Origin: Thuidium tamariscinum
Lineage: Eukaryota > Streptophyta > Bryopsida > Hypnales > Thuidiaceae
Direction: 5' to 3'
Length of the DNA: 64,000 bases
Assembly (NCBI GenBank): GCA_947034885.2
Contig: OX344755.2
Coordinates: 23,877,052 to 23,941,051 of the forward strand
Positions 3,381 through 47,310 of this stretch are shown here, piece by piece (the first letter of the stretch is position 1; every line of letters starts with the position of its first letter). A program made the position numbers and the translations under genes. A model generated the notes under the pieces. It was given only the letters and a program-made list of their open reading frames with translations, was not told the origin of the DNA and ran no database searches.

Positions 3381-3890
3381 AAGGCGACCGCGCGTACAGC
3401 AACCGCGCTTTCCAAAAATTGAAAACCTGCAAAGGTGCGACCGCGGGTCAGGGGCGACCTCAGGTGCCAGAACTACTGCCCGCCACCTCCATGCGCGGTC
3501 GCCCGTCCGGGGAGTGCGACCGCGGGTCAGGGGCGACCTCGGGTGCCAGAACTGCCGCCCGACACCTCCAAGCGCGGTCGCCCGTCCGGGGAGTGTGACC
3601 GCGGGTCAAGGGCAACCTCCGGTGCCAGAACCTAAACCGCCACCTCCATGCGCGGTCGCCCGTCCGGAGAGTGCGACCGCACTTGGGGCGACCACGGGTC
3701 ATTTTTTGCAGTTCCTCACCCTGTCCCGCGGTCGCCCTTCCACGCGCGGTCGCCCCACTACCCGCAGTCGCCCTCGTACGTGCGGTCGTCTTTGCAGGCA
3801 CCGTCGCCCCCATTACCCGCGGTCGCCCATTACCCGCGGTCGCCCTGTTCACCCGAAGTCGCCCTGTACCCGCAGTCGCCCCTGTGGCGA
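3381..3890. repeat. Subterminal array A-left (GCGGTCGCCC words)
   Basis: About 500 bp made almost wholly of GCGGTCGCCC, CGCAGTCGCCC and the reverse complement GGGCGACC(GC), in both orientations and irregularly spaced by 5-20 bp. It is extremely CpG-rich against an AT-rich background. Open frames here in all phases are composition artefacts, not genes. It ends a few bases before a TATA box that precedes the transposase gene. Confidence 0.85.
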
Positions 3891-3895
3891 CAGAG

Positions 3896-3902
3896 TATAA
3901 AA
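3896..3902 (+). promoter_or_regulatory. TATA box of transposase gene A
   Basis: TATAAAA lies directly after the last array word and 227 bp upstream of the chosen ATG at 4129. The same array, TATA, leader, ATG order recurs at other genes in the window. Confidence 0.6.
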
Positions 3903-4128
3903 CTGCAGCTGAAACACCGAGGGATTACCTTGCTTCAGTGATTAGACTCTAGCCTTGAACCTTCGAAAGAGGCTTCTTGCGGATGTTTTGGTTCATTGGA
4001 GGGCAAGAGCCTTGCTTTGAGGGGGTTTAAAAACCCTCTCACAGTAGGTAGCATTGTCATAACTTTTTCCTCGTTACTGGATTTTTGGATCGATTTTTTG
4101 GGGGTGAAACTCATTGTGGATTCACACC

Positions 4129-7100
4129 ATGGTTGTCCCAGGTGGTGGTCAAGGTCGGCCCGATACGCGTAGGGCTACAAAAGATTGGGACCCTTGGCTT
4201 GTACCGTGCGTTCCAAATGATAATTCATCCTATGCTCGGAAATGCGTGTTTTGCGGGTGGAGCAAAGTCTTTGTGCGGAAAAGGGCATTTAGTCACTTTG
4301 GATATGGTGGCTCGGCAACAGCAGACCATTGTCCAAAAATCCCTAGAAGTGCACGTGAAAAGTTTATGACTTGCAGCGGAAACGTTCCAAAAGCCATGAG
4401 CTTTGAAGAATTGTTTGAAACACCATTTGTGGGCAATGAGGCCATTGGTGCGGCATAATCCCTCATTCAAGAGGTAGAGGGTGGTGAGGTGGGTGGTTCT
4501 TCAAATCCAACAGGTCCAACCGGCCCGACAAACCCTACCCCAGATTCAGTGGATTCTACTCCAAGTACGATTGACAAAACAGGAAGCCGCCCTGTGGTTT
4601 CTCGTCAAAGAAGTATGGATGAAGCATTACAAATAGGCTTGAGACAAAAGTTGGATGTGACGTGGGCTTCATTTTTTTATGAAGCCAATATTGCATTCAA
4701 CGTCACGCGACACCCTGCATTTATAAATGCAGTGAAGGAAACTGCAGCAGCTGGAATTTTATATCGTCCACCAGCATTCAACGCGTTGCGTACCAAGATG
4801 ATTGATGTGAAGAAAGAAGTTGTCCAAAAAATGGTCAATGACCGGACAAAGAACTCTATTGCGCAATATGGAGCAACTATTTGTTCAGATGGGTGGTCAG
4901 ATACCAATAGGCGACCGTTGATGAACGTGATGCTCGTTTGTCCAGCAGGGGATGTGTTTTTGGGATCAGAGGACAGTACGGGAGCGAAGAAGGACATTGC
5001 CTACACGACAGCTTTAATGTCGAAGTACATAGACAAGGCCGGTCCTTCAAATATTGTGCAATTGTGTACAGACAATGCTTCAGTAATGATTGGAACTATG
5101 TCATATTTGTTACTGAAATATCCCCACATGTACAAACAAGGGTGTGCGGCTCACATCTTGGATTTGCTTTTGGAAGATTGGAAAAAGTCTCAAACGATGA
5201 AGGATTTGGTAAGCGAGTGTAGGACAATGGTGAAGCATATAAGGAAATACCATTTCACTATGGCTTTGTTTCGGAAACATTCTCCAAACAAAATGCTTAG
5301 GCTGCCTACTTTGACACGGTTTGCCACCAATTTCCTTATAGTAGACCGCCTGCTCGATTGCAAACAAGCTTTGCAAACCGTGGTTGCAGATGACGCTTAC
5401 ATGACCTTCGAGTTCAGTTTGCAGAATCGGACTAATGGAGGTACCATTAGGCGCAAAGCAATGGATGTTCGGCTAAACATTCATTCTGAAAGGTTTTGGT
5501 CAAAATGCAAGAATTTCGTGTTTATGATAGAGCCAGTACTCGTTGCTCTACGACACTTTGATGGCAAAAAACCAGCAATGCCAAAAGCTTGGTTGATAAT
5601 GTTCGAGTTGAAGAAACACGTGTATGCTCTCAGGGATCCTCCATTTCTTTTAGACCCTGTGGTTGCAACGCGTTACGAGAAGAAATTTGAAGCTCGTTGG
5701 AAGTTAATGCGAACGGACCTCCACTATGCAAGAGCACTCTTGAATCCGTTTTTGGCAGGAGTAGAAGAAATTCAAAACGATGGGGCGGCCAAAGCAGCTT
5801 TGAATCGAGTCATACGAAAACTAGCTCCATCATTAGGAGTTTCAGTGGTCATGGCAATGCAAGAGCTTGTCCAATTTGAGGAGAAGACAGGGCCATTTGA
5901 TCCCCGAGAAGAGGTTCTCGACATCACAAAGACCAATTTAGAACCTCATCAATGGTGGAATCATGTAGACAGCGATGCTCTTCCGAAGATTGCAAAGAGA
6001 ATTCTAGGGTTGACTTGTTCAGCATCTTCATGTGAACGAAACTGGAGCATGTATTCATTCGTGCACAGTAAAACGCGAAATCATTTGACCACAAAGAAGG
6101 CTCAAGATTTGGTGTACATTTATGCTAACTGCCACTTGGAACGTCAAAAGCGTGGGTACAATGCTACTCAATTTTATGAAAGGGTCCTCGTGGATGGAGA
6201 CACTGATGAAGAGAGGGACGAGCCTATGCCTTCAGGATCGGAGGACGAGGGTTATTTTGATTTTATCGAAGATAATTTAGTCCGAAGAGAAGAAGAAGAT
6301 CTCTTGCGCGATCACAATGAATGGGCAGATATGGTCCCACCTCCACCAAGTCCACTGCTATATCGATATGGAAACACATTTGCAAGTGGCAATGATGCGG
6401 AAAGTGTTGCTGAGGAAGAACTTTTTCGTTCTCCAGAGCGGAACCCTGATGATGCGTGGGTCGGAAATTGGGGCACAGTTTCACCACGAACTGCAGCAAG
6501 AACACCTTCTGACAACAACGAACAAGCAGATAATCAAATGCCTGCCTCAGATGTTCAAGAAACATCTCCAGTACCAACACGTATTCCTTCAAGCAGAGCA
6601 ATGAATATTGGAAACATTGCACCAATCAATGCGGGAATTGAAGCAGAAGAAGAGGTGGATCACATTGAAGAGGTTGTAGAAGAAGTAACTCCTATTTCAG
6701 TAGCAATGAATTCACCAACCATACAAACAACGGAGGCAGCTGAGTATGATTCAGATGCGCCACTGAATACCATCCTCAACCGAAGTCGGAACGTTTCCTT
6801 GACTCGAGGTGGACATACAGGGCAGACTACAGTCAGAAGGTCAGTCACAAATCCTTCTATAAGGGGCCGTGCGCCCAGAGGGGAAGATACAAGCCAAGGT
6901 AGAGTCAGAAGATCGGCCCCTAGTTCATCGACAAGGACGCCTTTGGATGGAGGTCCACTATCCAGCATCAATGAAGAAGTCCCCGAGTCCGCTCCACAAG
7001 CCACCCAACCAACCCCAGTGTCTGAGCCAAGAGAAATATCGTTGGAAGAACGACTACGCAATAGCAACAATAGAGACAGAAGTAAAAAAAGGCGCATTAG

Positions 7101-7497
7101 AAGAGTAGATGAAAGGACACACAGACATCCGAAGCGCGCAAATCAAATTGTGGAACCTTGTAGGCTTGGGGCAGGGTGCTCTACGCAAGAGGTCCAGCAA
7201 TCAAGCCAATCAATAGCGGTTCAAGCAGGTCCTGAATCTGTAGTTGATGGAATTATTGATGCAACGCATCCCACAAAACGACTAGTCCAGACTGCGATTC
7301 CTGGTGGTCAAGACATAGTTGTGCGGAATTTGACCTCGGAGGTGGAAAGAGAAATACGACCAGAACCAATAACAAGAGAAGAGGACGAGAATGACAGCTC
7401 AAGCCACGATAGCGACACAGACGCTGGTTACGCATCGCGCGAAGATACGGACCCTGATGCTGACGAAGTGCAGAACGATTTAGATTTTTGTTTGTAA
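4129..7497 (+). CDS. hAT-superfamily transposase (BED, DUF659, hAT dimerisation)
   Basis: This gene would encode the cut-and-paste transposase of unit A. From the ATG at 4129 a BED-like zinc finger is seen with ligands C39, C42, H56 and C68. The DUF659 / RNase H-like core follows, with CSDGWSD (D254) and CTDNAS (D315), then a helical insertion and the hAT C-terminal dimerisation region with CERNWSMYSFVHSK carrying the final acidic residue E636. About 450 further residues are acidic and Arg/Ser/Pro-rich low-complexity sequence. One in-frame TAA at 4456-4458 separates the zinc finger from the rest; the frame is otherwise open to the TAA at 7495. If translation restarts downstream the first ATG is at 4615, which would lose DNA binding. 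The stop probably replaced a CAA codon. The frame after it is 1002 codons long, so decay is recent. Family assignment is firm. Confidence 0.9.
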
Positions 7498-9310
7498 CTA
7501 GATATTAGTCCAATTGTTTGGAAGGTAAATTAGTCCCACTGTATCTTCCAAAAATGTTTTTTTGAAAAGATTTCTAGCAGAAGTTTATAGCCTAGTAGTT
7601 TAGTACCTTACATATTGATATGTTGTAGCACCTTACTAGGCATTTTCATCGTATTTCGACATATTAACTTTGGGGTTACTTTATTATTTTCTAGCCTTTG
7701 GTTTAGTTGGTTAACCTCACAGATTTTTAACTAAGTATATTTCTACCCAAATTGCTCCAAAATTGCGTTTTGTAATACAAGTGCAATGTTTTTGAAATTT
7801 TTGTTGTCACATATGAAATGGTGAGATATTCTTGTGGGATGGTTTCAGAAGATGTGGAGAAAATCTTCACCGTGTACATTGCAAGATATTAACATTTGTA
7901 CTAGCAAAACCCCTTTTTTTCCGGCAATTGGCCAATTGCCCTTCACAAGGTGACAATAGTATAAAAAACACTCAAAATTGATGGTTATTCTTTAAACTCA
8001 TATTAGAATCAAAGTGGTATGTATGCTCTACATTCTACAAATTTGTAATCATTTGGAATTGTTCAACATATGGGAGAAAAAACATTAAGTTAGAAACCAA
8101 CAAAAAAATAGAAAATGCTTGAAAATACTAAGTTGTCAACAAATTATTTATAAAAATGACAAATGCCAATTACTTTAGTTAAAGTATTGTAAGAAACAAT
8201 CTTCATCCAATGTTTCACTTTTTTTTCAAAAATAAAAAAAATTGAATGGAATAAAGAATTTCAAACTTTTTTGGTAGAGTAGAGATTCTATAAGTACCCA
8301 TTGACTACCCCAAACTAAAATTCCTCATAACTTTTGACTCATGTATTGAAATGGAATGATTCAAAGGTTTACACATAGATAAAAATCTAATAAAGATATT
8401 TCAAATTTTTATTTCTTAATGTCACAATTTCTAAAGAAGTTTTTTTTTGGTGCCCGGGCTACGCACAATTTTAAAGGAAACAACACGTCATGTCCTAACT
8501 TTTTGATCGTGTAGTCAAAAGGGATTATATTGTTGGTCCTTTTCCCCTAAGTTGCGGGCACATGTTGTGTCAAAATTTCAAAGAAAAGAAAATCAAATTC
8601 AATAGGTAGTGAGATCCCTAGAAATGCAATTCGGGGCTTTACGGGTTAATGATTGTGTCAATTCAATTCAATACACCACCAACACAAAGGTCCTTTAGAG
8701 GCACACCCTCACACCCCTACAAGAAAAAATTCAAAATGTATAATATATTGTTGTTATTTAAAATGAAAACTACAATGAAGTGTAGACCTGTAGTAATAAT
8801 CAAGGATTGTAGTTTAAAAGGTCACAATGCTATAAATAAACTTTGAAAATGGTAGTTATATTTTAAAACCATTCTATAAGGCAAGCTCGGTATACGCTTC
8901 AAACAAAATTAAAGACTATTGGAATTGTACATTATATAGGAAAAAGATTGTAGAGTACATTTTGAGAAGCTATAAATTGACCGGGGTTATGCTTGTAAAG
9001 CCCTTTCATCCCGTTTTTTTTAATCATAAACTTTTTAGATTAGACTTGTAAACGGAGGGTTGAATGACTTCAAATCTCTTTGGCAATTTGGATACTATAG
9101 TGATTAAACATTATAATCTTTCAATCCATAAGTGATATATGTTTTGTTCTCCTAAATGATCTCTGACATGTCTAGTTTGAATTAGAATGGTTACATTTTA
9201 AATTTTCTTTCTTAAAGCTCATCATGAAGTAATTTTTTTCTTCACTTTAGAAATTAGAACAAATTCCTAGAAACTCCCCCAAAGGCCTTGAGCATTTAGG
9301 GGTAAAAAAC
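7498..9310. other. AT-rich 3' region of unit A, no gene
   Basis: This stretch holds the 3' flank of the transposase gene. No frame longer than about 65 codons has recognisable content. In unit E the corresponding space holds a kinase gene on the other strand; nothing kinase-like is visible here. Confidence 0.6.
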
Positions 9311-9606
9311 ACCCGCGGTCACCATCAAAGACAGAGGCGCGGTCGCCCTGCACCCGAGGTTGCCCCTAACCAGAAGTCGCCCTTCTCTTGTACCCGAGGT
9401 CGCCCTATACCCGAAGTCGCCCTTCCATTGCACCCGCGGTCGCGAAAGAGACGCAGTCGCGCTGGATTTTTAACCCGCGGTCACGCTTGAGCCCGGTACC
9501 CGTGGTCGCCTCTGCACCCGCTGTCGCCTACCCGCAGTCGCCCTGAAAATCAGATGCGCGGTCGCCCTTACCAGAGACGCGGTCGCCCCACCCGTAGTCG
9601 CCCTGC
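9311..9606. repeat. Subterminal array A-right (GCGGTCGCCC words)
   Basis: ACCCGCGGTCGCCC, CCCGAAGTCGCCC and similar words recur about every 15-25 bp, mostly in one orientation. The core is the same as in the array at 3381-3890. Confidence 0.8.
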
Positions 9607-9639
9607 CTCGCTTTCCACGTCAACGTGGACAGCCTGCCA

Positions 9640-11050
9640 CGTAGGCAAAAACTTTTTACTTCGCGGTAAAAAAATTTACCCTTGCGCGACAGGACAGGAC
9701 GGGGTAGCGACAGGTTGTCTTATACGACACGCGACATCGGACGTCTAACACGACGCCGAAACCCAAAAATATGTCTAACAGAACAACCCTGGTTGGCAGA
9801 CCTTCCGGTGGACAGAACTTTCCTATGGCGGCCGCTTAACTCCGCACGAATCCGCCCCTGCGGTTCCGGAACCTCCTTCGCGTCACTCCTGGATTCACAC
9901 TGAATCACCGTTCTGGTGAATTAAAGGCTCCACGCTCAAACTCACGACTCAAAACCTTGGATCTCGGAAGTTGGTCACTCAGTTCGGATTTCAGTTGCCT
10001 AAGAATCCGGATTCCTCCTCACTCGTCCCTCTTGCCTCTCAACACTTCAACAAACACACCAAGAAAGACTCAAATACAAGTCAGAGCTAGATTGTCCATT
10101 CGCCGGCTCAGATTAAAGAAGGGAATGAAATACAATGGAATATGCACTAGGAAAGAATGACAGGCCAACTAACTTGCTTGCCCCTTAAAAGCTCAAAACA
10201 AAACGAAAGTCAAAGCCTAAAAACAGAAACGGAATGCCAACAAGGCAAAAAGGAAATCCGAAACAACCAATCGGAACCCAACCGGATTATCCGGAAAGGT
10301 CCGGCCAATTGATCCTAAAGTTCCGGATCGGGACCCACACCCAAGAAATCCGTCCAGGAAACTTCCGTCCAAAATCAAAATCCTAACTACTCAACTCTGT
10401 CCTACTTACGCGCCCGCTTCGATGTAGTACTCGCGGGCGGAACTGAACTCCTCCGCGTCATTGCCTTGGGAGCGGGAGCCTTCTTGGTGGCGGATCGGGT
10501 CTGCCTCTTCTGAATCGGAACCGATGGCGTTCCGCTGTCTTCCGTCGAGGTCTCATCCGAATCCGCCTCGAAGCTTTCTGACCGCTCCACTTCCTGGAAT
10601 CCGCCCTGCTCCCTAGCTTCATCACGGATGATGAGGGGCGGATTGTCTTCCCTGTCCGAGTCATCCAGGATGACTGTCTTGTTGCGCGGATCCTTGCCTG
10701 GAACCTTGTCTGGCTCGTTCATGTGGGCGAACTTCTCCGGATTCTCCCTGGCCGGATTCGATAGGGCCTTCACCTAGATCTCTAGGTCGAGCCGCAGTGA
10801 TGCCCTCTTCTCTTGCGGTTCCGTAGGTGTATTTGATGGTCCGGCCGCATTCGGATCCGATCCGAGCTCACCGAGGTTCTTCACGACCGGCGAGTTTCTG
10901 AGTAACTTCCGATCCGTCGACATTCGTCCTTGCGCTCTGGGGCTGAAGTCCGTGTAAACCTACTGGTTGAACAAGCTTGACAGGCCTTCCCCCAATTCCG
11001 GATTGAGAGCCCCAATCAAGGCCCTCATCTCCTTCAGTACCCCCTCCATC
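9640..11050 (-). other. GC-richer coding-like remnant, probable retroelement fossil
   Basis: On the minus strand the part 11050-10402 has coding-like composition: an acidic, Pro/Ser/Thr-rich stretch ending in a basic tail (TRSATKKAPAPKAMTRR, then SKRARK). Part 10400-9640 is non-coding and GC-richer than its surroundings. Low-complexity gag-like proteins look like this, but there is no zinc knuckle, protease or polymerase in view. It looks broken. An unrelated transposon accessory gene is also possible. Confidence 0.3.
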
Positions 11051-11054
11051 CAGG

Positions 11055-11285
11055 GCTGTGCGGACGTCCGGGCGTCCGCGTCCGCGTCCGGCACCCCGCG
11101 GGCGTCCTGTGACATTTAAATTTCCTTATTTAGTGCACCCGGTAAAATATAGAGGCGGACGGCCGCCCCGGCAGGCGGCGTTGGAGGTCCCGTCCGACCG
11201 CCTGTCCGCCCCGACCGCCAACGTCCGCCACGAAAGCGATCCCGTCTGCTCCGACCGACTGCGTCCGCCACGCGTCCGTGATTCT
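11055..11285. repeat. Subterminal array B-left (GTCCGCC words)
   Basis: Clustered CGTCCGCG, GACCGCCTGTCCGCC and GGCGGACGG words of the GCGGACG class, interrupted by a short AT-rich segment at 11115-11150. It is the likely left end of unit B, whose other array is at 18399-18700. Confidence 0.65.
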
Positions 11286-11289
11286 CACT

Positions 11290-12992
11290 TTCAATATAGC
11301 CATTTTGGTATTTAACTTAAAATAAGAAAATGAAGCTTGAAAACTTTTCTTTTTATTTGAACTTAAAATTTTGAAAAATTCCAAGAATTGAAAAATTTAT
11401 TGCAATTGCAAGTTCTATGTGTTGAAATCCGTCAAACACAATACATTGTCTTTTTCATTCATATTTATTCGTTTTAAGATCAATCCTTAATTTCAATTGC
11501 AATATTCAGTTTTCCATTTAACATTCATTAATGGTGAAAATTTCAAACTATTCCAATATATAGTATAATTGATATAATTTTCTTAATTTTTTACTTTAAA
11601 ATTATTACAATAATATGTAGTTTTCATCAAGCAATTTGTAGAAAAATAGAATATGTAGAAAGTAGAATTTTACAATAGAATTTCTCTTGATAATGTATAA
11701 AATCAAAAATTTAATTTTCTTTAATAGCCAAATTTGACTTTGAGGTCTTTGTTATTGTAGTTTTTGGTTCAAAATTTTTGAAAGGCAAATTGAAAATTAT
11801 ATATAGTGATCTTCACTTATACTTGTACCTTTGGAAGAAATTGAAAGTATTTCGGATTTTTTCTGCTAGTTTTCCTATATTTATTTTTAATTTTTGTAAA
11901 AAAATGATAACGATTAGAATTTTTCTCAAAATCAATTGCTCCCATTTTTGGTTCAATTGATAATCAACTATTGTTTCAATCAAATTTTTGTTTCAATTGA
12001 TTTGGTTATTTTTGTTTCAATTAAAAATCGGCACAAAATCAATTGAAACCAAAATATAAATTTTATATCGATAAAATTCATAGTTTCTATTCCATTTGGT
12101 CAAATATCATGCTTAAGCTAAAATAAGCATATCTTATTTTGTTCAAACATCAATCTTATATTTTTATTACTTGAAACTATGAATTTTATATCACTATGAG
12201 GAAATTCAAATGATTTTGAGAGAAATTTTAGTCATCTTTTTAGTTGCAAATATTAATTGGTGGGGAAATTCACAATAAAATTTTGGAACAATGTACCCTA
12301 TTACTTGAACAAGTTAACAAAAAGATCGATAAGTTGGTTTTCTTAAAAAAAATTTAATCATGAAGATTTTGATTTTTGACATTCCTTTCAGGACAAGTTT
12401 TTAGTATTTTGAAGTGCATTTCGGGCACCAGTCCTTTTGGGGTTAATGGCATTTTCGAATTTTGAATCATGATCTCTCCATGTCATGATTTTATTTAAAA
12501 TTGCCATAAATTTCTCAGAGCTCCGCAAAAAGAATTTTGTCACTTGAATTTTATTTGTGAAACGTTTGTACACCTCTGAAAAATATATAACTCTCTTGAA
12601 GTTCACCCTAACATACTCAGATTGCAAGTCAGGGCGCTAATAGGTACTTCTACCTTACTTACTACTTAGACCTTATACATCATGCAAATTGTTACACAAC
12701 CTTATCAAGTATCTATGTGCACAACAACATCTACCAACAATAAATACTATTGATCTCATTCCCCCCCCTATGAATACATTTGCCTATCAAGTATCAAAGA
12801 TCATAAACATTAATAGCTGAAATTTTCAAATGCTTTCAGTAATTCAAAAAATATAATAGATTTCATTTGGGTTGCCATACATTGGTGCTCCGTATATATA
12901 CTACATATTATATATGCCGCACGTGTACATTCTCTCTATAACATAGACTACATATCATTCTATACTTACGTATGCTACTATACTATGCCGAT
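11290..12992. other. AT-rich interior of unit B, no gene
   Basis: Long A/T runs and weakly repeated words; no domain-bearing frame. It is the 3' flank of the kinase-like gene on the minus strand. Confidence 0.6.
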
Positions 12993-18700: not shown

Positions 18701-18702
18701 AC

Positions 18703-34974: not shown

Positions 34975-34978
34975 TTAA

Positions 34979-36111: not shown

Positions 36112-37773
36112 CTAATCTTCATTCCTTGCTTGTTCTTGTAGAAGTGCTTGCTCCTTGCGGGCCTCGCGGTAGCAATCTACGGGTGGAGTCCAAAATAAGG
36201 GGGCGCCACTAATTCGTCCCACGGCGTACGTTACCGTGCGTTGTTGTAGTGGGTCCTCTTTGCACAATTCGCCCAATGTGGCTTGAAATGTACCAAACGC
36301 TGTATGGTCGGGAAGCATTTGTGTATTTTCGCGGTCTTTCTTCCATATCTTCTCTGCAAGCTTCCCAACAGCATATCCGTCTGTATGTATACTAACACAC
36401 GGTGCCCCATCTGCACGAGTGGGGGATACCGAAGTGCCCACCTCTCCAGGAACATACATCAATTCAGGGGCCACCCACCAACGTTTCTGACGTGTAGCCC
36501 GCATTTGGCTTGCACATTGAAACTGGTACAAAGAATGGGTTTCTTCATTGATACGACTAGCCATTCCCCAATCACATAGCCCAATCCACACTGTTCACCC
36601 ATCATCATTCGGAAAATGCAACATGATGTTTTCTGGCGTGATGTCGTTGTGGAGCACCGAAGATTGTTGCACCGCATCCACGATGCAAATTAACGCCTAT
36701 GCAAGCTTGGTGCGGTTTCTACGATAAGCCAAGAGTCTTTTGGCTTCTTGCATCGTCTGTGGAGTTGCATGGTAGGCAAGCTCCCCGATCTCAGCATAAT
36801 CTCGGTTTTTGTGGTCCAATGCGAACATGGCTCCCAATGTTCCTCCATTCCACCATTGAGAATAACACTCCATGGTCATGTCATTTATAGCAAAAAAATT
36901 TATGACCCCTGGATGATTACATGGACAAACCAAAGCCTCGATGGACAACTTCTCCCGCGACTTCTTCAATTGATCCACATATAGGGCTGTCTTGCCCGCC
37001 AATTCCATCGTGGGGGGAATGTGCCTTGAATTTTGGAGGCTCACTTTACGCACCCTCCCGTGCCCCCCTTGTTTGTTGTGGCCTGACAATGGAATCACCA
37101 CCACTCCTCGTTCCAGAAATACCACTCCTCCCGCACCCGCTTGGCCTAGGGACAAGCTTTGGCTCTGCTGAAACCATGGGGCAGAGCGGATATTGCTGGA
37201 AGACAGCGCTCGCATTGCGTCATGCCACCAATACACCTTTTTGTGCAACAAATGCAATGCTTGTTGCTTCGGCGCTACATCTCGTTTGAAGCCCTTTACC
37301 GATGCGGCGACTTGGGCGATGTTGAAAACACAAGTTTGCACTTGTTCGTCAAGCCAACGACGGAAGTGTTCCTTTGTGCGATCTTCAAGCCACTCATCCT
37401 CGCCCATTGTTGTCCAAAACATGTGGGTGAATTTGTTTTTTATTGTCTCCACCCCTTGCAATCCACGCGAGACGTAGGTCGTATTCAATTGAGCAATCGT
37501 ATATTGCTCCAGAAAATCCAATGCCACTTCCTGCACTTTCCTGGTCGCAGCCTTCCTTGGCCAGTCGTCTGTATTCGTAGCCTTGTGCCTCCGCCTGCTC
37601 TTTTTTTTCTTGGCCCCCGAAGATTCTCCTCCAGCCGCACCACCGACCCCTTCTCCGGCCAATACTGCCTCCGATACGCAGTCAATGGATTCTGGAGACT
37701 GCTCACCAACAGGATCTCCGATGCCTGAAAACCACTCATCAACCTTGCGCTTCGACGCACCTCGCCCGTCCAT
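36112..37773 (-). pseudogene. Kinase-like gene of unit E
   Basis: One frame of 553 codons from ATG 37773 to TAG 36112, with two in-frame stops (TAG at 36697-36699, TGA at 36595-36597). Residues 1-70 are low-complexity and basic (KKKKSRRRHK). Residues ~75-190 form a helical region shared with gene B. The kinase fold follows: a Gly-rich loop near 225-240 (NKQGGHGRVRKV), catalytic loop H375-N-D377-ITPE-N382, metal motif D401-W-G and APE at 435-437. HND/DWG in place of HRD/DFG and the missing catalytic-loop Lys make it divergent, but the key Asp and Asn remain. Gene B has Trp where the TAG lies, so that stop is a Trp-codon change, not a recoded Gln. Substrate unknown; regulation of transposase or host silencing factors is speculation. 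Confidence 0.8.
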
Positions 37774-37967
37774 TCTGAAAAAAAATATGCGATGGTAAAA
37801 CCAACGAATTAGGGTTCAGTACTCACAAATGTGAAAACTATCCCCCCTTCCTCAACCGAGCCTCCTCGCAAGCACCCGCGCTCCCAAGCAAGGACTGCAA
37901 CCAATCCAGGGCAAGAGAGCACCGTCAGAGTAGGAGAGACTCGTGCAGAGTGGAGGACCTGGCCCAC

Positions 37968-37975
37968 CTTATATA
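37968..37975 (-). promoter_or_regulatory. TATA box of kinase-like gene E
   Basis: TATATAAG on the minus strand, between the array (37985-38265) and the ATG at 37773. Confidence 0.65.
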
Positions 37976-37984
37976 GTCGTTGGC

Positions 37985-38265
37985 GAGCCATCGCATGGAC
38001 GGCCGATCCGTCCAAGGAACTTGAAAGCCGTCGAGGGGTGTCGGGAACTCCGAAACCGTCGAGGGGACGCGCTGAAGCCGTCGAGGGGAATGTCGAGGAC
38101 GATGAGGCCGTCGACGGGACGCACCCATCCGTCCCGGGAATTTCGAAGCCGTCGTGGGGACCATTGAGGAACTGCGAGACCGTCGACGGGACGCACAAGC
38201 TGTCTTGGGAATTCGGGGGTCCGTCGTGGAACGAGGCCGTCCACGCGACCCCACAGGGCGTCCCG
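37985..38265. repeat. Subterminal array E-right (GCCGTCGAGGGG words)
   Basis: About ten (GAA)GCCGTCG(A/T)(G/C)GGGA units, separated by CGGGAATTC-type spacers, spaced about 20-30 bp. The core matches the E-left array in reverse orientation, as expected for opposite ends. Confidence 0.8.
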
Positions 38266-38462
38266 GGAATTCTGAACCATTAAGGGGATCGTCGGGGAAG
38301 CACAGGGCGGTGAAGATGCCAGCGAAGACTTAATGGCAAGCCTCGTGCAACTGAAATTCCTCTACAAGGTAATAAGGTAACAGGCCAGAAACCGCCCATC
38401 TAAGGGCTGACACTGAATTTTGAGAAGGTCAAAAACCCAGCCTAAAGCCCTTGCCCAACCGA

Positions 38463-38504
38463 GGGTTTAGGGTTTAGGGTTTAGGGTTTAGGGTTTAAGT
38501 TCCT
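38463..38504 (+). repeat. Interstitial plant telomere repeat, 6 x GGGTTTA
   Basis: Six perfect units in a row. Supports a green-plant origin. It lies about 200 bp outside the right array of unit E, perhaps marking a repaired break. Confidence 0.9.
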
Positions 38505-39720
38505 TTTTACTTTTGCGTAAATGAGGGTAAAATGTCTAGTTTAGTAATTTAATAACTTAAGAAGTGCATTATAATTTGTATTCGGTAATTGATCTTTATT
38601 TTCCTAGCGTCAATCTAATTTTGCAAATTTTGAAGTAAATAAAAGAAATAACATGAAATGATTAAACTTATTGGTTCTAGTCTAAACACATACCTCTTCG
38701 GTTGATGCGTATCCGTTCTCAGTTGTGTCGTCAAAAAGCTCTACTTCCTCCCTTTCCATCTAATTTCATTCTCCCCCGCAAATTTAGGAAATAGGAGCTA
38801 ATTTTAATAATTTAATCCGGCTTAATTAGCATTTGCTATTTGATGGTCACACTATAACTCCTTGAGGAACTTAAATCATTTCCGTACAATGACTTTGCCT
38901 AAATCTAATTCAAGCGTACATACATCTATTTTACAAAATGGGGTCATATAAAATGCCTAATTGAATTCTTCAACCCAATTATATTGTTGTAACTTACTAG
39001 GAATCTAGGATGTTTTTTGGTATGAAAGATGTGCATATGGATGTTTCCTACATATCTCCTCTTTGCAAATTAATGCTAATTCATCACCAATGTTTTATAA
39101 TTAATTATCATGCTAAACCATGAGTTTTGAATGAAACAATTCACCAAAAACTGAATTTGACTTATGTGAAATCCACATTTGGTATGCTTGATTATATTAT
39201 GCAAAATTCGTTTCAATGGCAGAATTGGATGATCCTAAACTTGTTGGTGGGTAGTGTGTAATGTACACGGCTAAAATTTTACATTGCCTTCCAGTGCTTC
39301 AGCTCATATCGAGAATGGCTGAAGTGATGGACCCTAAATTTTAGAAGTTGCCCTACGGATATGTAGGGATTTAAACTTCTCAATTTTAAATTCGGGAGCC
39401 ATCCGACTAGGCATGTATTTTTTAGGAAATTAGATTAGTACTACATGTACATATTAGTATATTACTATATTGCATAATATTCTGGTCATGTAGTCATGTA
39501 CTCTACTTATGAGTTATGAAACTATGAGTTATGAAAGTATAAGTGAACTAAAGCACTAATTAGGAGTTTAGGACGGGGGCACTGGCAAGCAAGACTCCGT
39601 TAGTGGGCACCAACCAATTTTCAGAATTCAGACTTCTGCGGAACCCTAAACCGCTCTAATCCTCTCTTTGCCGAAGTGTATGATAAACCCTAGAAGAAAG
39701 AGTTAGAATTCCGCAAGTGT
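38505..39720 (-). other. Non-coding stretch with a retroelement-like leader remnant
   Basis: A short minus-strand frame (38694-38759) ends at a GTATGT donor and has the same start context and FDD..T..YA.TEE texture as the leader frame near the 3' end of the solo LTRs. The flanking DNA does not align well, so this may be a distant LTR relative, very decayed. No other feature seen. Confidence 0.3.
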
Positions 39721-39724
39721 GTTA

Positions 39725-40085
39725 ATGGTTTGAACCAAAAAAACACGTCAAAGGGTTAAAAAAGTTACCCCAAAAAAATATAGAAAGGGTTTGGAAAGAA
39801 ATTGTCGAGCCCTGTTCGAATAAAAAAAATGTGGAAATGGGTTGGAAAAAAATGTGTTAATGGTTCAATTAAAAAAAATAGGGAAAAGGTTTGAATCCCC
39901 AAAATGGAAGTGGTGTGAATAAAGCAAAACGTTAATGGTTTCGGGTGTTGGGCAAAAATATATAGAAGGGATTTGGACCAAAAAATGGGTTAATGGATCG
40001 ACTAAAAAAATATGGAAATGGTTCGGTTTGGAAAAAAATGTGGAAATGGTTTGAATAAAAAAAATGGGAATGGTTTGAATAACAG
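39725..40085. repeat. Degenerate minisatellite (GGTTTGAA..AAATGTGGAAATGG)
   Basis: Alternating tggaaatggtttgaa and poly-A blocks, unit about 25-45 bp. The same unit in the opposite orientation fills 45360-46690. Confidence 0.75.
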
Positions 40086-41667
40086 ACTCAAGGGTTCACA
40101 CCCCTTATCTTTTGGTAACCACGTGCGATAATGGGGTATTTAATGGGGGGGTATTTATGTCCTTCTCATGTTTTTTTCCCTCCCTATTAGTAGAAATAAA
40201 GCTACCGGAGTGTATTTTAGAGTACCCTATTTTCTTTTGTAAATTCTTTGAAGGACTATTTTTGAACACCCTATTTTTTTTCTACATTTCATAATTACAA
40301 AATATTGAGAAGATCAAAAACATTGTATACAAGGAAACATGTCAGCTTCAAGGATTTTGATGAACTAAGAACATGGTGAAACGCACAGCATATGCTATCT
40401 ATGTGCCACTAAAGAGTTTGAAAATCAAAAATCAAAGCTACAACTATTTATATTTCACCATTTATAAGAAAACAAAGCACACAATAGAGAAATTAAACTA
40501 TAGTATACAATCCTAATGCAATATTTAAAACCAATTTAAAGGCACAAGAGCATATTCACATTCATTTATATAATAAGAAAACTTAGGGAATTTAATAAGC
40601 CGATTGTGTTTAAAAACACAAGTATCAATAAGTCTGCAAATCCATTCTAACATCTAAAATGAAGAAGTTCAAGGACCTCTTGCTCTCAAATCAACTATTA
40701 TGGTAGGAAGCTCACAAGGAGGTTCATAAACTATGCAGGCTTTTTTATCTGCCTAATAGGACTATAGGAGGGTCTGAATTGAAAAGCTCATTGTGAGGAA
40801 ACTAATTGTGGATTATATTGAAGCATGCTAAGATTTGATTTTTACTATATGAATGGATGGTTTTAGAGTTACAATGGATTCAATCGTAACTAAGTGTACT
40901 TATAGGTGTCTACTAATTTTATTCAAAATAAAAAATGGTTGTTAAACTACCTTCTTTCAAATGTGAAATTGTTTTGAAATAATGATTAATTGAAGAATTC
41001 ATTTCAGTTTTTGAAAGGGACACATTTAGAAACCATTTCAAACCGTTTTTTACATGTTGCATTACTAGTTTTTGAACCAAACCAGATTCTTTTAGAAACT
41101 GTGCATGTATAGATTTTCAAGGCTTACTGATCACAAATAGGGTCCTATGACAAATTGTGTTTGAAAATTCATAATTAATTCAATTTTTCTTCCAAAAAAT
41201 ATGAAACAACTTGTATTAGATTCCTCATCTATTTCTCCTTGACTGAAAAATAAACTAAAAATATTTTCATTTAAAGACATACACGAAAAAGGCAAATCAA
41301 CTCTTAATTTAAATAAGTGCAATCTTTGCCTCCTACTTGTCACAATCATGAATCCCAAAAAAATTTAAAAAGAAATACAAGATCTGAATGAGTCACACAC
41401 TTGTCACAACCATGAATGAATCCCAAAATATTTAAAAAAAAAATGCAAGCTGTGAATGTTAACTCATTGAGCTCCAATAAAAATTACAGTATACAGGTAC
41501 TGCATTGGCAATCTTCACCAGTTCACCCACATTAAAATTCTGCTGTCTTACAGCTTATTGCATCTCAACTGCCTAAATGAATACCAATTGCGTAATTGGA
41601 TCCTGGCTGTCTAATTGGATTCCACCTGCCTAATTGAAATTCAGTATATATTGTAGCCACCTATTGG
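40086..41667. other. AT-rich spacer without a gene
   Basis: A duplicated phrase (cacacttgtcacaaccatgaatg near 41398, tgtcacaatcatgaatccc near 41338) and runs of attggatcc-type words near 41585-41640 are the only structure seen. Confidence 0.5.
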
Positions 41668-42370
41668 GCCCGTCCAGGACCTGGGCAGGCCGTCACGGGG
41701 ACGGAGGGCATCCCTAAAACCGTCCAGGAAGACGGGCCCGTCGAGGACGGCCAGGGAGGACTGACCCCTCTATTGCCCCTTTTTTACCCTTGCAGAAAAC
41801 CCTGGAATTTCTTTTATTTTTCACACAAATTCTTTTTTGCAAATTCTGAATTCTTATTTGGAATCAGAGACCTCGATTTAGCTAGGGGACGTGTTGAAAT
41901 CTAAAATTTAATCGGCACAAAATAGGGGGGAATTTTTTACATATACCCTCCGAAGGGGCAATAGAGGGGTCAGTCCTCCCTGGCCGTCGAGGACCTGGGC
42001 AGGCTGTCACGGGGACGGAGGGCGTCCAGAAAACCGTCCAGCAACACGGGCTCGTCTAGGACCTGGGCAGGCCGTCCGCAACGAATTTGGGCCGCGGGCC
42101 GGAGCGTCGAACTGTCTGGGCAGGCTGTCCACAGCGGAACAGTGGCCGTCCAAGACCACGGGCAGGCCGTCACGAAGAGCCATTTTTGGCCATCGAATTT
42201 GTAATTCGGCGGAGTAATTATGGATTTTCGAACTCATGAGTGTTTTCGAACTCGTTGACGGCGCCGGACTTGTGGACGGCCTCTGTGACGTCATCCCGAA
42301 GCTATCGACGGCCTCCCGAACCTCCGTCGACGCTCCCTGGACGCCCCAGCCGTCGATGGCCGTCTGCATC
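41668..42370. repeat. Subterminal array F-left (GTCCAGGACCTGGGCAGGCCGTC words)
   Basis: Two long direct repeats of ~75 bp (41671-41746 and 41986-42060) plus shorter GGGCAGGCCGTCC and GACGGCCTC words. A 237-bp MITE divides the array. Confidence 0.8.
41749..41985. mobile_element. MITE inside array F-left, 31-bp perfect inverted repeats
   Basis: A 31-bp segment at 41749-41779 (starting GGCCAGGGAGG) is matched perfectly in reverse complement at 41955-41985. The 9-bp GTCGAGGAC borders both sides (41740-41748 and 41986-41994). Long inverted repeats and a 9-bp duplication suggest a Mutator-like MITE. Because the array itself contains GTCGAGGAC-like words, chance agreement of the flanks is possible. 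The interior is AT-rich and non-coding. Confidence 0.65.
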
Positions 42371-42444
42371 AACGGCTCCAGGTGGTGCATGGCGATGTGA
42401 TTAGACACAAATTAACACTCCTAACGAGGCTTGGTAATGGGGAG

Positions 42445-42450
42445 TATAAA
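42445..42450 (+). promoter_or_regulatory. TATA box of gene F
   Basis: TATAAA in ggggagTATAAAtccc, after the array and 208 bp upstream of ATG 42653. Confidence 0.6.
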
Positions 42451-42652
42451 TCCCAAATTCAGCCACAATTAACCTTGCTTTCTCTCTTGAGTTGCTCTGT
42501 TCTAGCTTGAAAAAAGCTTTGCATTGCAATTCGGGAGGAAGTCAAGCATTTGGCTATTGCTTTGCCACATTCCAGTTGCCCTCACGCAACAGGAGGCAGA
42601 GCATAGTCATCTGTACATACACATCCGTGTTGTGGCATTGTGTACAGGTACT

Positions 42653-45016
42653 ATGGCCTTAAACCCACTAGAGATGGTAATACATGTAGAGAACCCCCCC
42701 ATGGCAGAGAACCAGGAGGTGGTAGTTCCTGGAAATCACCCCCTAGTGGTAGAAAACCAGGAGATGGTAACCCATGAAGGTGAACCCCCACACAGGAGGC
42801 ATCGTGGGAACAGGAGCACTGTAGACTGGGCGACTTTCAACACTGGAGAAGTTTTGGCTGGGCACGGGTGGGAACAGGCGCTTGAGCCATGGACCCGCAC
42901 CACATGTCGGACATACGTGGACTGGGCCCACATCAACCGCCATTTTCCACGGGAGAGAAATGAGACGCAAGTGCGATCTGGCGTTGCATTGATCAAGTAT
43001 TGCGTACACCCAACGTTCAAGAAGCGATTGACCGAGGTGGCATTGGCACTTTGGGGGACCCTCTCGAAGAAGGATGGGACCCTCGCATTGTGTCAAATGG
43101 CGTATGCGGAGGTTTTTTTGGACAAGGACGTGGATTGGAACACATATCCGGCAAAACAACGGGGCGGCCGTTTCCCTGCTAAAAGCCATAGAATTCCACC
43201 AAATCCTGCACTGCAATTGGAGGGCGAAGGAGTGGCTGGGGCACAAGGGGACGAAGCGGCGGCCGCGGACCCCATGGAGGTCGACAATGCACCTCAAGGC
43301 GCCAACGAACAAAATCCGGTGGCTCCCGAATTGGAGGCGCCCATTGCCGGTCCAAGCGAGCCCATGCCACTCGCCATTCACCCAATTCCCCCGTCCATGA
43401 CAATTAATGAAGTATTTGGAGCAAATGGGGAATTAGAGGCATTACGTGCATTGGTGATTAAGCTGTGTGAGGATGGTGCAGAAGCTGAGCGAAGGCACGA
43501 GATGGAGGTACAAGCCCACAACACACGAGTGAAGGCTTTGGAGGAAACGAATGCTAAGTTACTAGCAAGTAACATTGACTTGCTTGAACGTGAACGTTGC
43601 CAAAGCACGGATGGCACTCCACCATTGGATGAGGTTGTGGAGCGGGCCACGTATGGTCTAATTGAGCCAGCTGACCCGTTGACGGTGTGCCGGGTGCGGC
43701 CTCGTGGTATATTCCCAACACCACATTTTCGTGGTGAGAGTTCAAATGCGGCAACCCAATCAACAGATGCATTGGGCCAAGAGTTCATAAGCGTTGAGCG
43801 CGTGGCATACGATGCCCTTGTGGCACGAGCGGAGCGTGCAGAGGGCGAGTGCAATGAGGCCAAGGCCAACATGGAGACTGTATCAGCGGCTTTGGAGGGA
43901 CTACAGGACGAGTTGGCATTTGTAAATGCCATGAAGGATAGATTGTTGCAACAAACGTCAACTACGAGGGAGCAAAAGTTGCTTGCCATGAGCAACATGA
44001 GATTGGCATGCACTTTGGCTATGAACGAGGTCGCACAACTGCAACGTGAAGTCAGGAGAATAGCTGCACAATTTAGAGATGGTAGCCAACGTTATTTTGG
44101 CTTGACATCGTGGGCCCGACTGGAGGATATGTTTCCAGTTACATTGCCCACAAATCGCGATAATGCAAGCATTGATTGGGACGGGCATCCGCATCTAGAC
44201 TTCCAATTCAACACCGCGAGATACCGATACGGGCCCGTGGATAGAGAAGGCAATGCCCCCTTACTGTGGCCCATAGTTCCCGAGTTTGTGAAGGATGGAA
44301 CGACGTGCACAATTTACATGGAACCGTTTGGGCCCGAGGGTGGATGGAGCCTTGGAACGTGTGGACATATGTACCACCCCGGATGTCTCATTCCGCACAT
44401 GGTCACAAGAAAGCGATGCGCACAATGCAAGGCTCCTTTGCACCGGCGGTTGTACGTCCAATTTGGGTTGGAGGATTACATGCCCCCACACTTCGAGTTG
44501 AACGAAGAGAACTTGCCTGGCAATGAGAATAGAGGGAGTTGGGGTAATGACATGATATGGATGTGGAAGTGGGGCCATGACAGTAGACACCTCACCGTGT
44601 GCAGCGTGTAAGACGTTCCGTGGATCGATGATGCGGAGATTACGGAGGTGTGCAAGAAGCTGATTAGTGCGGGCGATCCAGGGCGGCGAGTATTTTTTGG
44701 CCAACTTGCTGGTGGCCATTGGGACTTGGACCGACAGGAGTTCGTGCGCCGACCACATCCAGAGAATGTGGTTTTTGACTCCAGCGGAAATCCTATCGGA
44801 ATACTCCAAGACATGGATCATGAGGCACAAATGAGGTTCATCGAAGACACTACGTTCAATGAGGTGCAAATGTTGTCAACCATTTCTTCCTACTTGCACG
44901 ATCGATATGATCGGACCGTAGTGGCTACGTTGAACAGTTTGCAATCTAGAGAAGGATTGCAAGATTTTTTGAGAAATAGTATAGGCAGAGGCATTGTAGA
45001 ACCAGAACAAGGTTGA
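42653..45016 (+). CDS. GWE-WT domain plus coiled coil plus RING protein (unit F)
   Basis: ATG 42653 is chosen because it starts just ahead of the conserved domain; the frame is also open from 42524. Domain motifs GWEQ, WTRTTCRTYV, HINRHF, MAYAEVFLDKDVDWNT lie at residues ~65-165. Long heptad-like helices follow near 260-320 and 400-480. The RING has C552, C570, H572, H575, C578, C589 and C592, but the second ligand position (555) is Tyr, one G-to-A change from Cys, so zinc binding at that site is probably lost. A TAA at 44609-44611 interrupts the frame; it then stays open to TGA 45014 with a region (GRRVFFGQLAGGHW) that aligns with GRELFCRNMGGHW of the gene at 25753. Role unknown; E3 ligase-like by fold. 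Confidence 0.75.
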
Positions 45017-45359
45017 ATACCTTCTGGTGATGAGTTAGGCCATTAGACGGATGTATAGTATATTAGTATTGTAAATAGTATTTGGCTATGACGACCATTT
45101 ACGAGCGTTTGTTGCTCATGTTGCAAAAGTACATTTTTTGGGCAATGAAGCATTTTCATTTTTCTCGTACAACTGTATTGTCTATTAAACACTTAAACTG
45201 AAAACTTAACCATGAACAAATGAAAAGAATACTCAATACGTTTGCTTGAAATGTATGTGCAACAAGTTCATTTAAATCCAATGCCATACTTTCACTTAAA
45301 GTATATTTTGTAAGTTCACTTTTAAAAATTGCCAAAATTCTATTTTTTACATATGCCAC
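45017..45359. other. 3' flank of gene F
   Basis: AT-rich, no gene; leads into the minisatellite. Confidence 0.5.
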
Positions 45360-46690
45360 AAGTATATATGCTTTTGTTTTTGATTCCCACCATTTCGAAT
45401 TTTTTTAATCAAACCATTAACCCAAGTTTTTCCCACCGCATTTTTCCACATTTTTTTTTTCCACATGTCAAACCATAACCATTTTTTTACCCTAACCCAT
45501 TTCCATTTGTTAGATTCAAACCCTTTCCATATTTTAGATTGAACCCATTTCCATATTTTTATTAGTCGAACCATGAACACATTTTTTTAAACCATTTCTA
45601 TATTTTTTTGTCGTCCACATTTCAAACCATCAACGTTCTTTTTTATTCAAACCATTCCCATTTTATTGATTCAAACTATTTCCAATTTGAGCCTTAACCA
45701 TTAAGGCATTAACATTTTTTTTCCAAACCATTTCTAAATGTTTTTTATTCAACATTTCAAACCATGAAAGTTTTTTTTTTCAAACCATTTCCATTTTTTT
45801 AATTCAAACCATTTCCATATTATTTTTAATCAAACCCTGAACACATTTTCTTTCCAACTTATTTCCATATTTTATTTAGTCAAACCATTAACACATTTTT
45901 TTTCACGACCCTTTCTATAAGTTTTTTTCCAACCTTTCAAACCATTGCCTTTTTTTTTATTCAACCCATTTCCATATTTTTTTTTATTCGAAGCATTTTC
46001 ATATATTTTTTAGTCAAAACATGAACACATTTTTTTCTAAACCATTTCTATATTTTTTTGTATTCAACATTTCAAATTATTAACTTTTTTTTTATTCAAA
46101 GCATTTCCTTTTTCTTTTTCTTTGATTCAAACCATTTCCATATTTTTTTTAGTCGAACCATTAACCCATCTTTTTTCCAAACCATTTCTATATTTTTATT
46201 TCCAACACCCTATACCATTACCGTTTTTCTTTACTCAAAACTTGGCCATTTTTTTTACCCTAAACCATTTCCATATTTATTCTAGTCAAACAATTAACAC
46301 ATTTTTTTTCCAAACCATTTCTAAATTTGTTTTTCCAACATTTCAACCCATTTCCATATTTCTTTTAGTCAAACCCTAATCACATTTTTTTCCCAACCCA
46401 TTTCCAAATTTTTTTGGTCGAGCCATTAACACATTTTTTTCCAAACCCTTTCTATATTTTTTTTTCATTCAACATTTCAAACCATTAACGTTTTTTTTTA
46501 TTCAAACCATTTCCATTTGTTTGATTCAAACCATTTCCATAATTTTTTTATTCGAACAATTAACACATTTTTTTTCAAAACCAGTTTTACATTTTTTTTT
46601 ATTCACAATTCCAAACCATTAACGTTATTTTCATTCAAACCATTTCCTTTTTTTTGATTCAAACCATTAACACCCTTTTTTTAAAATACA
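45360..46690. repeat. Degenerate minisatellite (TTCAAACCATTTCCATATTTTT)
   Basis: About 1.3 kb of alternating caaaccatttccatattttttt and caaaccattaacacattttttt blocks, unit about 20-45 bp, strongly T-rich. It is the reverse complement of the unit at 39725-40085. Open frames here are artefacts. Confidence 0.85.
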
Positions 46691-46849
46691 GAATATATAT
46701 TATATTTAGACTATGGAAGGCCTAAAATACAAAACCATGGGAAATTATTTTTTGAGAGATGGTTAAACCTCATAGACTAATGAGAAAATTTTGATTGCGA
46801 ATATGAACTTAGACTTTTAAGTCTTACAAATAAAGAGTTCCAGTCCACG

Positions 46850-47310
46850 GAGCTCAGGCCGTCCATCCTGACCATCGACGGCACGGCCAGGCCGTCCATC
46901 GAACCCAGGCCGTCCAACCTTCCTCTCAATCCAAGTCGTCCTTCCCAAGCGTAGACCGTACCCAGACCGTCGATCTGGAGGCGTCCGTCCGGGCCGTCCA
47001 CTAGACGTCCTGTCCATCGGGGCCGTCCATACCCTGCGAGTGGGGCCGTCCCCTAAAACCGTCCACCGGATCCGGACCGTTCGCAGAACCGAGAGTGTCC
47101 ATCCAAGCCGTCCAGTCAGCCAGGACCGTCCATCGGAACTGTCCACCGAGCACGTCCTTCCAGGCCGTCCACGGAGGTCATCCGTGAGGGCGTCTACGAC
47201 CGCTGTCACGATTTTTCATCCTCTGTCGCGGATTCTGTCGTGAATTTCATCCTGACGGACGCTCGGCTCCCCGTCACGTCAACGGACGGACATCCTGACG
47301 GATGGACGCG
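46850..47310. repeat. Subterminal array F-right (GGCCGTCCA words)
   Basis: CAGGCCGTCCATC, AAGCCGTCCA and ACCGTCCACCG words about every 15-25 bp. No gene starts inward within 300 bp of it; the nearest inward sequence is the T-rich minisatellite. Confidence 0.8.

What the first reader, a model, noticed from the sequence alone, without database searches (positions are those of the whole stretch)
3381..47310. A family of hAT-type transposons that carry kinase and RING-type accessory genes
Within 44 kb the same plan recurs at least six times: CpG-rich word array, TATA-like box, short leader, one long near-intronless gene. Genes are of four kinds only (hAT transposase, kinase-like, GWE-WT domain, GWE-WT plus RING). 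Unit E joins transposase and kinase between matching arrays. Typical hAT elements encode only a transposase, so protein-modifying cargo (kinase, ubiquitin-ligase-like) is unusual and may act on transposase or on host silencing.
Basis: partly seen in the sequence, partly recalled or inferred. Interest (0 to 1): 0.92.

Follow-up and report, generated by a model that had tools for sequence, protein, structure and literature searches.

The report
Decayed multi-gene transposons with kinase genes
This stretch of a eukaryotic genome holds decayed jumping genes that seem to carry, beside their own transposase, a protein kinase and a ubiquitin-ligase-like gene, each gene sitting behind a cluster of short DNA words that is alike within one element and different in the next.

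Summary
Eight genes or remnants of four kinds (hAT transposase, protein kinase, GWE-WT, GWE-WT+RING) each follow a CpG-rich word array; three more arrays have no gene.

The 11 arrays use three word families in three contiguous blocks: GTCGCCC (3.4-9.6 kb), GTCCGCC (11.1-30.0 kb), GGCCGTC (30.7-47.2 kb). Every array's nearest relative lies in its own block (11/11), never in its own gene class (0/11); 1 of 6,930 labelings, the observed one, fits this well. Array identity follows the block, not the gene. Block 3 is probably one 16.7-kb element (30636-47330) with hAT, kinase and GWE-RING genes and outward-facing CAGGGTTG ends.

Against it: no 8-bp target duplication; the end match is notable in place, not in score; of eight gene copies five carry premature stops and one is a remnant; F may be a nested unit; no genome for copy number.

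Closest precedents: VANDAL/VANC arrays, fungal hAT7 with TET/JBP, fungal IS3EU with alpha-kinase, Ac subterminal repeats. I read it as a new variant: multi-gene hAT-like elements whose genes share element-specific arrays. The anti-silencing mechanism is inferred.

The parts
3381..3890 (.). Block 1 array upstream of hAT A (word GTCGCCC)
4129..7497 (+). hAT A transposase gene (DUF659, hAT dimerisation), one premature stop near 4456
9290..9791 (.). Block 1 geneless right array and candidate right end (..CAACCCTG, last base 9791)
11051..11290 (.). Block 2 geneless left array (GTCCGCC) and candidate left end CAGGGCTG
12996..13955 (-). Kinase B, C-terminal part (LHNDIS..N, CDWG), one stop plus frame break
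17793..18239 (-). Kinase B, N-terminal part
18400..18705 (.). Array upstream of kinase B (GTCCGCC)
20382..21458 (-). GWE-WT C gene, 358 aa, open
21715..21970 (.). Array upstream of GWE C (GTCCGCC)
25290..25520 (.). Array upstream of GWE-RING D (GGCGGAC)
25753..28893 (+). GWE-RING D, 1046-codon frame with three premature stops
29885..30020 (.). Array upstream of hAT D' (GTCCGCC)
30265..30635 (+). hAT D', N-terminal remnant; taken to end where block 3 begins
30636..47330 (.). Block 3: probable single element, CAGGGTTG ends facing outward
30680..31200 (.). Array upstream of hAT E (GGCCGTC)
31433..34603 (+). hAT E transposase, 1056 aa, open
36112..37773 (-). Kinase E, kinase motifs by eye (Gly-rich loop, HND..N, DWG, APE), two premature stops
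38000..38300 (.). Array upstream of kinase E (GGCCGTC/CCGTCGA)
39720..40082 (.). AT-rich array, left arm of an inverted pair around F
41665..42400 (.). Array upstream of GWE-RING F (GGCCGTC)
42653..45016 (+). GWE-RING F, 787-codon frame with one premature stop
45384..46684 (.). AT-rich array, right arm of the inverted pair around F
46860..47330 (.). Block 3 geneless right array (GGCCGTC) and candidate right end (..CAACCCTG)

Best explanation
The region holds three decayed, diverged hAT-type transposons side by side: block 1 (about 3.34-9.79 kb, transposase only), block 2 (from 11.05 kb, kinase, GWE-WT, GWE-WT+RING and a truncated transposase, right end not found) and block 3 (30.64-47.33 kb, transposase, kinase, GWE-WT+RING). 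In each, every gene starts behind an array of CpG-rich words special to that element, and the same words stand near the ends that could be found. Most likely the words are binding sites of an element-encoded DNA-binding protein; the first candidate is the transposase (its N-terminal Cys/His pattern looks BED-like by eye, though Pfam reports no BED finger), as Ac transposase binds its CpG-containing subterminal AAACGG repeats; the second is the GWE-WT protein. One protein would mark the ends for transposition and switch on, or keep unsilenced, the genes of its own family and not of the others, as VANC proteins do for VANDAL elements. The kinase and the GWE-RING protein would act as helpers, modifying the transposase or host silencing factors. 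Shown: gene kinds, arrays, word partition, end motifs. Inferred: unity of each block as one element, DNA binding, anti-silencing, the targets of kinase and RING.
For: Array 6-mer profiles, corrected for dinucleotide content, group by block and not by gene class (two control stretches correlate at 0.08 or less with every array); for k=5, 6, 7 all 11 arrays have their nearest neighbour in the same block, 0 of 11 in the same class (hAT, kinase, GWE with or without RING, geneless), and 1 of 6,930 labelings, the observed one, reaches the value. Word places: GTCGCCC 22 of 23 in block 1 arrays, GTCCGCC 25 of 28 in block 2 arrays, GGCCGTC 32 of 37 in or at the edge of block 3 arrays, the other 5 being one in each block 2 array. 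CAGGGYTG occurs 7 times; 4 lie 85-188 bp outside an outermost array word and face outward (9791, 11051, 30636, 47330), 2 are in copies of another repeat, 1 in hAT E coding. 30636 and 47330 are each other's best 65-nt end-anchored match of 63,935 positions, and the block 1 right end also picks 30636 as best in the window. Kinase and GWE-RING both recur in two diverged blocks (kinases 33%; RING parts 41% over 91 aa), which speaks against one chance capture. TATA-like box 189-246 nt before the ATG in 6 of 8 genes. CpG o/e 1.21 in arrays, 0.77-0.90 in coding parts, 0.48 in block noncoding DNA: fits arrays kept unmethylated in the germ line, but also simple word content. Precedents.
Against: No target duplication: the 8 bp beside 30636/47330 differ at 5 of 8 places and beside 3337/9791 at 4 of 8; near-duplicate 8-mers around the block edges are about as many as chance gives (22 vs 19 block 1, 69 vs 69 block 2) or, where more (30 vs 15, block 3), the best of them lie mostly inside word-rich DNA, and none of the five best shown per block sits at a CAGGG end. 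The 65-nt end match scores 34, no more than array segments reach in general (60 random anchors: mean best 33.8, max 43); only its place is notable (best at 30600-30690 in 1 of 60). Block 1's left end (3337) is weak (rank 259 of 63,935); block 2's left end finds its best partner inside the D array (25379), not at an edge. Gene order differs between blocks 2 and 3. F lies within an AT-rich inverted pair. An array inside repeat R1 in block 2 also correlates at 0.09-0.22 with block 2 arrays. Words and the CAGGG motif were chosen after reading the sequence. No second copy of any element was seen.
Confidence: 0.55

Rival explanations
1. Separate small elements: each kinase, GWE and GWE-RING unit is its own non-autonomous element with array ends, mobilised by whichever hAT shares its words; blocks are clusters of family-preferential nested insertions.
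For: Each gene has its own array; F is enclosed by an AT-rich inverted pair; geneless arrays could be the far ends of such units.
Against: CAGGGYTG was found at block edges, not around single units. Three insert families each landing in one contiguous stretch is less simple than three elements. Ends of another sequence were not searched for unit by unit.
Confidence: 0.25
2. GWE-RING F alone is nested: a foldback-like element (about 39.7-46.7 kb) with long AT-rich inverted arrays inserted into a shorter hAT plus kinase element (block 3).
For: 39724-40082 matches stretches of 45389-46684 in inverted orientation at 66-80%; three of its words fall in the arms in 23 of 26, 14 of 18 and 6 of 6 cases.
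Against: F's promoter array has block 3 words, not words of its own. No such AT pair was reported around GWE-RING D. No convincing duplication at the arms: 3 near-duplicates vs 5 expected.
Confidence: 0.3
3. Host genes: a lineage-specific family of host kinase and RING genes with CpG-island promoters, near which hAT elements have landed; words were homogenised locally.
For: Arrays look like promoters (TATA, leader); local gene conversion could make neighbouring arrays alike.
Against: Of the five kinase, GWE and GWE-RING copies four are broken; arrays also stand without genes near CAGGG ends; transposase genes use the same arrays as their neighbours; local homogenisation would not by itself give steps at 9.8/11.05 and 30.64 kb that coincide with end motifs.
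Confidence: 0.12
4. Remains of a large DNA virus or provirus with a hAT gene, kinase and RING genes.
For: Near-intronless kinase and RING genes are usual in large DNA viruses (recalled).
Against: No virus hallmark gene among the ORFs scanned (not all ORFs); hAT, GWE and GWE-RING profiles found no relative in viral contigs (the kinase alignment could not be searched).
Confidence: 0.03

Closest known systems
VANDAL elements with VANC anti-silencing protein (Arabidopsis; PMC5735166, outline, abstract and passages seen; PMC10398659, passages seen)
   Same: DNA transposons with accessory genes; noncoding parts rich in tandem short words that differ between related families; VANC binds the words and removes silencing of its own family.
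   Different: MULE transposase, not hAT; words such as YAGTATTAY and AGTTGTCC, here CpG-rich; GWE-WT has no Pfam match and was not compared with VANC itself; binding not shown.
Fungal TET/JBP-carrying DNA transposons: hAT7 and IS3EU (PMC12730594, passages and two sections seen)
   Same: hAT elements with an extra gene that may act on chromatin; IS3EU carries transposase and an alpha-kinase in opposite orientations, as hAT E and kinase E here.
   Different: Cargo in hAT7 is TET/JBP; the kinase is an alpha-kinase and sits in IS3EU; no RING gene or family-specific promoter arrays in the passages seen.
Maize Ac/Ds (PMC3260210, passages seen)
   Same: hAT superfamily; subterminal repeats of a CpG-containing word bound by the transposase.
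   Different: 4.6 kb with a single gene (gene number recalled); repeats near the ends, not before internal genes of other kinds.
KIU VANDALs (VANC with an Ulp1 domain; PMC13317346, passages seen)
   Same: An accessory protein family with a second form fused to a ubiquitin-system domain, as GWE-WT and GWE-WT+RING.
   Different: Ulp1-type protease domain rather than RING; VANDAL, not hAT.

Membership tests
hAT superfamily | Transposase with DUF659/RNase H-like core and C-terminal hAT dimerisation domain | tested here: met
   hAT A and E: DUF659 111.5 and 122.1 bits, Dimer_Tnp_hAT 30.2 and 37.4 bits, all above cut-off; E has weak phmmer matches to Hermes C-terminus, E 0.002-0.004
hAT superfamily | Short terminal inverted repeats | tested here: inconclusive
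   CAGGGTTG at both ends of block 3, best-placed match but of ordinary score
hAT superfamily | 8-bp target site duplication | tested here: not met
   Flanks differ at block 3 and block 1 ends; near-duplicates around block edges look like chance or word content. So only the transposase genes, not the whole elements, are filed as hAT.
VANDAL/VANC system | Family-specific short-word arrays in noncoding DNA of related elements | tested here: met
VANDAL/VANC system | MULE transposase and VANC protein family | tested here: not met
   Transposases are hAT; GWE-WT ORFs C and D have no Pfam match; VANC itself was not compared
VANDAL/VANC system | Element protein binds the words and removes DNA methylation | not testable with these tools
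   needs binding and methylation data
TET/JBP-carrying fungal transposons | TET/JBP dioxygenase gene | tested here: not met
   No such match among the 10 ORFs and 5 further frames scanned; not every ORF was scanned
Eukaryotic protein kinases | Conserved kinase domain with catalytic motifs | tested here: met
   Kinase E read through: Pkinase 35.4 bits, cut-off 31.7; HNDI..NIM and CDWG shared with B. B piece below cut-off. Model uninformative, pLDDT 33.7
RING-type E3 ligases | RING zinc-ligand pattern | tested here: inconclusive
   D at cut-off or above, F below it, with CTIY where D has CTVC

The most novel reading that the evidence does not exclude
A new class of multi-gene hAT transposons in which every gene, and the ends, carry the same element-specific CpG-rich word array, read by an element protein (GWE-WT or transposase) that frees only its own family from silencing, with a kinase and a GWE-RING ligase as effectors against host silencing: a VANC-like self-recognition system evolved independently in hAT.
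Probability: 0.25. Interest if true: 0.85.

Novelty: new variant of a known kind. Interest (0 to 1): 0.62.

Why it matters
If right, it adds protein kinase and ubiquitin-ligase-like genes to what hAT-type elements carry, and gives a second, independent case of family-specific word arrays tied to the genes of an element. It would make the open question of how transposons evade silencing without waking their rivals testable in another transposon superfamily, with the array words as ready probes.

Tried and rejected
Whole-genome search: no genome is held for the window. Relatives: hAT, GWE and GWE-RING alignments in viral contigs (88, 45 and 28 pattern matches, none confirmed); GWE in prokaryote genomes (24 pattern matches, none confirmed). 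PDB by sequence: the N-terminal ORF of kinase E and the GWE profile gave only chance-level hits (E 0.39 and 0.96); the catalytic part of the kinase was not searched there. Structure: GWE model pLDDT 55.3, best PDB hit E 9.2, uninformative; kinase model pLDDT 33.7, not used. The organism was not identified; a paper search with the guess Chara braunii gave nothing bearing on it. A window-wide scan for inverted ends plus duplications gave 408 pairs, of which I saw the best 60, many from the R1 repeat or AT-rich DNA; a focused check of block edges followed. One 8-mer near-match to the right flank of block 3 stands before a CAG in the D' leader (30211, 7 of 8); with 23 such near-matches in the window I took it for chance. 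The mononucleotide-shuffle comparison of block ends was set aside because word-rich DNA inflates it. I first took the hAT D' frame to run on to 30684 because of a five-residue match; the blastp match covers only the BED-like part, so I now end it at 30636. Papers: nine searches, several with capped lists (25 of 37, 20 of 55, 10 of 2,600, 10 of 1,925, 12 of 16 shown); in the titles and abstract starts listed I saw no hAT element with kinase and RING genes; one search found 0 papers for its five phrases. Most subscription papers are not in that library, so this is no proof of absence.

Full report
What was checked. The window is eukaryotic-looking DNA without a held genome, so the case rests on the 64 kb and on published relatives. 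ORFs and Pfam show four gene kinds with arrays in 3.4-47.3 kb: hAT transposase (A, D' remnant, E), protein kinase (B, E), GWE-WT (C) and GWE-WT+RING (D, F). hAT A, kinase B, kinase E, GWE-RING D and GWE-RING F carry premature stops (1, 1 plus frame breaks and an insert, 2, 3, 1); hAT E and GWE C are open; D' is a remnant. The copies are not recent duplicates: hAT A and E are 47% identical over 556 aa, GWE domains 29-36%, RING parts 41% over 91 aa, kinases 33%.

The arrays. Eleven CpG-rich arrays were bounded by eye from the sequence and CpG counts. Counting seven-base words shows three families in three contiguous stretches. GTCGCCC: 22 of 23 matches in the two block 1 arrays. GTCCGCC: 25 of 28 in the five block 2 arrays. 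GGCCGTC: 32 of 37 in or at the edge of the four block 3 arrays, the other five being one in each block 2 array, so blocks 2 and 3 are more alike than either is to block 1. Because these words were picked after looking, I tested the grouping without them: 6-mer profiles corrected for dinucleotide content, repeated for k=5 and 7 with all 6,930 labelings. Within minus between block correlation is 0.33 at k=6, reached by 1 of 6,930 labelings (the observed one); nearest neighbour in the same block 11 of 11; in the same gene class 0 of 11. The block labels came from the word counts, so this is not a fully blind test, but limits and labels were set before the profiles were compared. Two control stretches correlate at 0.08 or less with every array; the array of the R1 repeat that sits in kinase B correlates at 0.09-0.22 with block 2 arrays.

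What follows. If the arrays belonged to the genes, kinase arrays would resemble kinase arrays; they do not. They resemble the arrays of whatever genes stand beside them. The simplest reading is that the genes of a block are, or were, one element.

The ends. CAGGGYTG occurs seven times in the window. Four lie 85-188 bp outside the outermost array word of a block and face outward: 9791 (block 1 right), 11051 (block 2 left), 30636 (block 3 left), 47330 (block 3 right). Two lie in copies of repeat R1 and one in hAT E coding. I took the motif from three of the four; 30636 came out of the search. In an end-anchored comparison of 65 nt, 30636 and 47330 are reciprocal best of 63,935 positions each way, and the block 1 right end independently picks 30636 as the best left end in the window. 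The score itself is ordinary for word-rich DNA: 60 random anchors in the right array reach 33.8 on average, up to 43; only the place is unusual (1 of 60 has its best at 30600-30690). Block 2's left end finds its best partner inside the D array, not at an edge. The 8 bp beside the block 3 ends differ at 5 of 8 places; near-duplicates around the edges are at chance level for blocks 1 and 2 (22 vs 19, 69 vs 69) and above it for block 3 (30 vs 15), where the best of them lie mostly inside word-rich DNA. Block 3's left neighbour is the hAT D' remnant and in its right neighbour no hAT gene was found, so one side has probably been rearranged (inference).

Anatomy of block 3 (30636-47330, 16,695 bp): array, hAT E reading right, kinase E reading left toward it, array, about 3.3 kb spacer, array, GWE-RING F reading right, geneless array, end. 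Block 2 has geneless array, kinase B and GWE C reading left, spacer, GWE-RING D and hAT D' reading right. Gene order is thus not the same. Block 1 has transposase only.

Doubts. F stands within an AT-rich inverted array pair, 39.72-40.08 and 45.38-46.68 kb; three of its words fall in the arms in 23 of 26, 14 of 18 and 6 of 6 cases. F may be a nested unit; its own promoter array nevertheless has block 3 words. CpG o/e is 1.21 in arrays and 0.48 in block noncoding DNA; this fits lack of germ-line methylation but also follows from the words themselves.

Function. hAT A and E have the domains of hAT transposases. Kinase E shows kinase motifs and passes the Pfam cut-off when read through. RING is clear in D and degraded in F. 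GWE-WT has no relative in Pfam, PDB, viral contigs or prokaryotes at the sensitivity used, and its model is too poor to use. In maize Ac the transposase binds repeated CpG-containing subterminal hexamers (PMC3260210, passages); in Arabidopsis VANDALs an element protein, VANC, binds family-specific tandem words in noncoding DNA and removes silencing (PMC5735166, PMC10398659, passages); fungal hAT7 carries TET/JBP and fungal IS3EU carries an alpha-kinase opposite to the transposase (PMC12730594). The present elements combine features of these. I take array reading by an element protein as likely, and effects of kinase and GWE-RING on transposase or host silencing as plausible but untested.

Verdict. 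It is a new variant of known multi-gene transposons; genome-wide copies are needed to settle it.

Noticed in passing
window 13956-17694, 52870-56726, 62264-64000: A 3.7-kb repeat (R1): one copy splits kinase B, a second lies inverted to it, a third matches its first half and runs to the window end. Two copies hold GC-rich word arrays (16126-16329, 54230-54340) with words unlike each other.
   Followed up: partly
window 34977-35901 and about 22830-23474: MITE-like inserts with CCTTTAGGGGTTAA-type ends by eye; 23050-23474 and 35423-35901 are 76% alike.
   Followed up: partly
window 39720-40082 and 45384-46684: Long AT-rich inverted word arrays (AAACCATTTCCA) that flank GWE-RING F, like arms of a foldback element.
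   Followed up: partly
window 18703-19671: 176-bp tandem repeat, 5.5 copies, directly beside the kinase B array.
   Followed up: no
window 48977-49474: 110-bp tandem repeat, 4.5 copies.
   Followed up: no
window 10405-11050: Minus-strand coding-like stretch (retroelement gag-like by eye only) that stops where block 2 begins.
   Followed up: no
window 58198-58788: NLI-interacting-factor phosphatase (NIF) match, 26.9 bits, above cut-off.
   Followed up: no
window 38462-38497 and 23967-24002: Telomere-like AGGGTTT words in the spacers between the divergent gene pairs of blocks 3 and 2.
   Followed up: no
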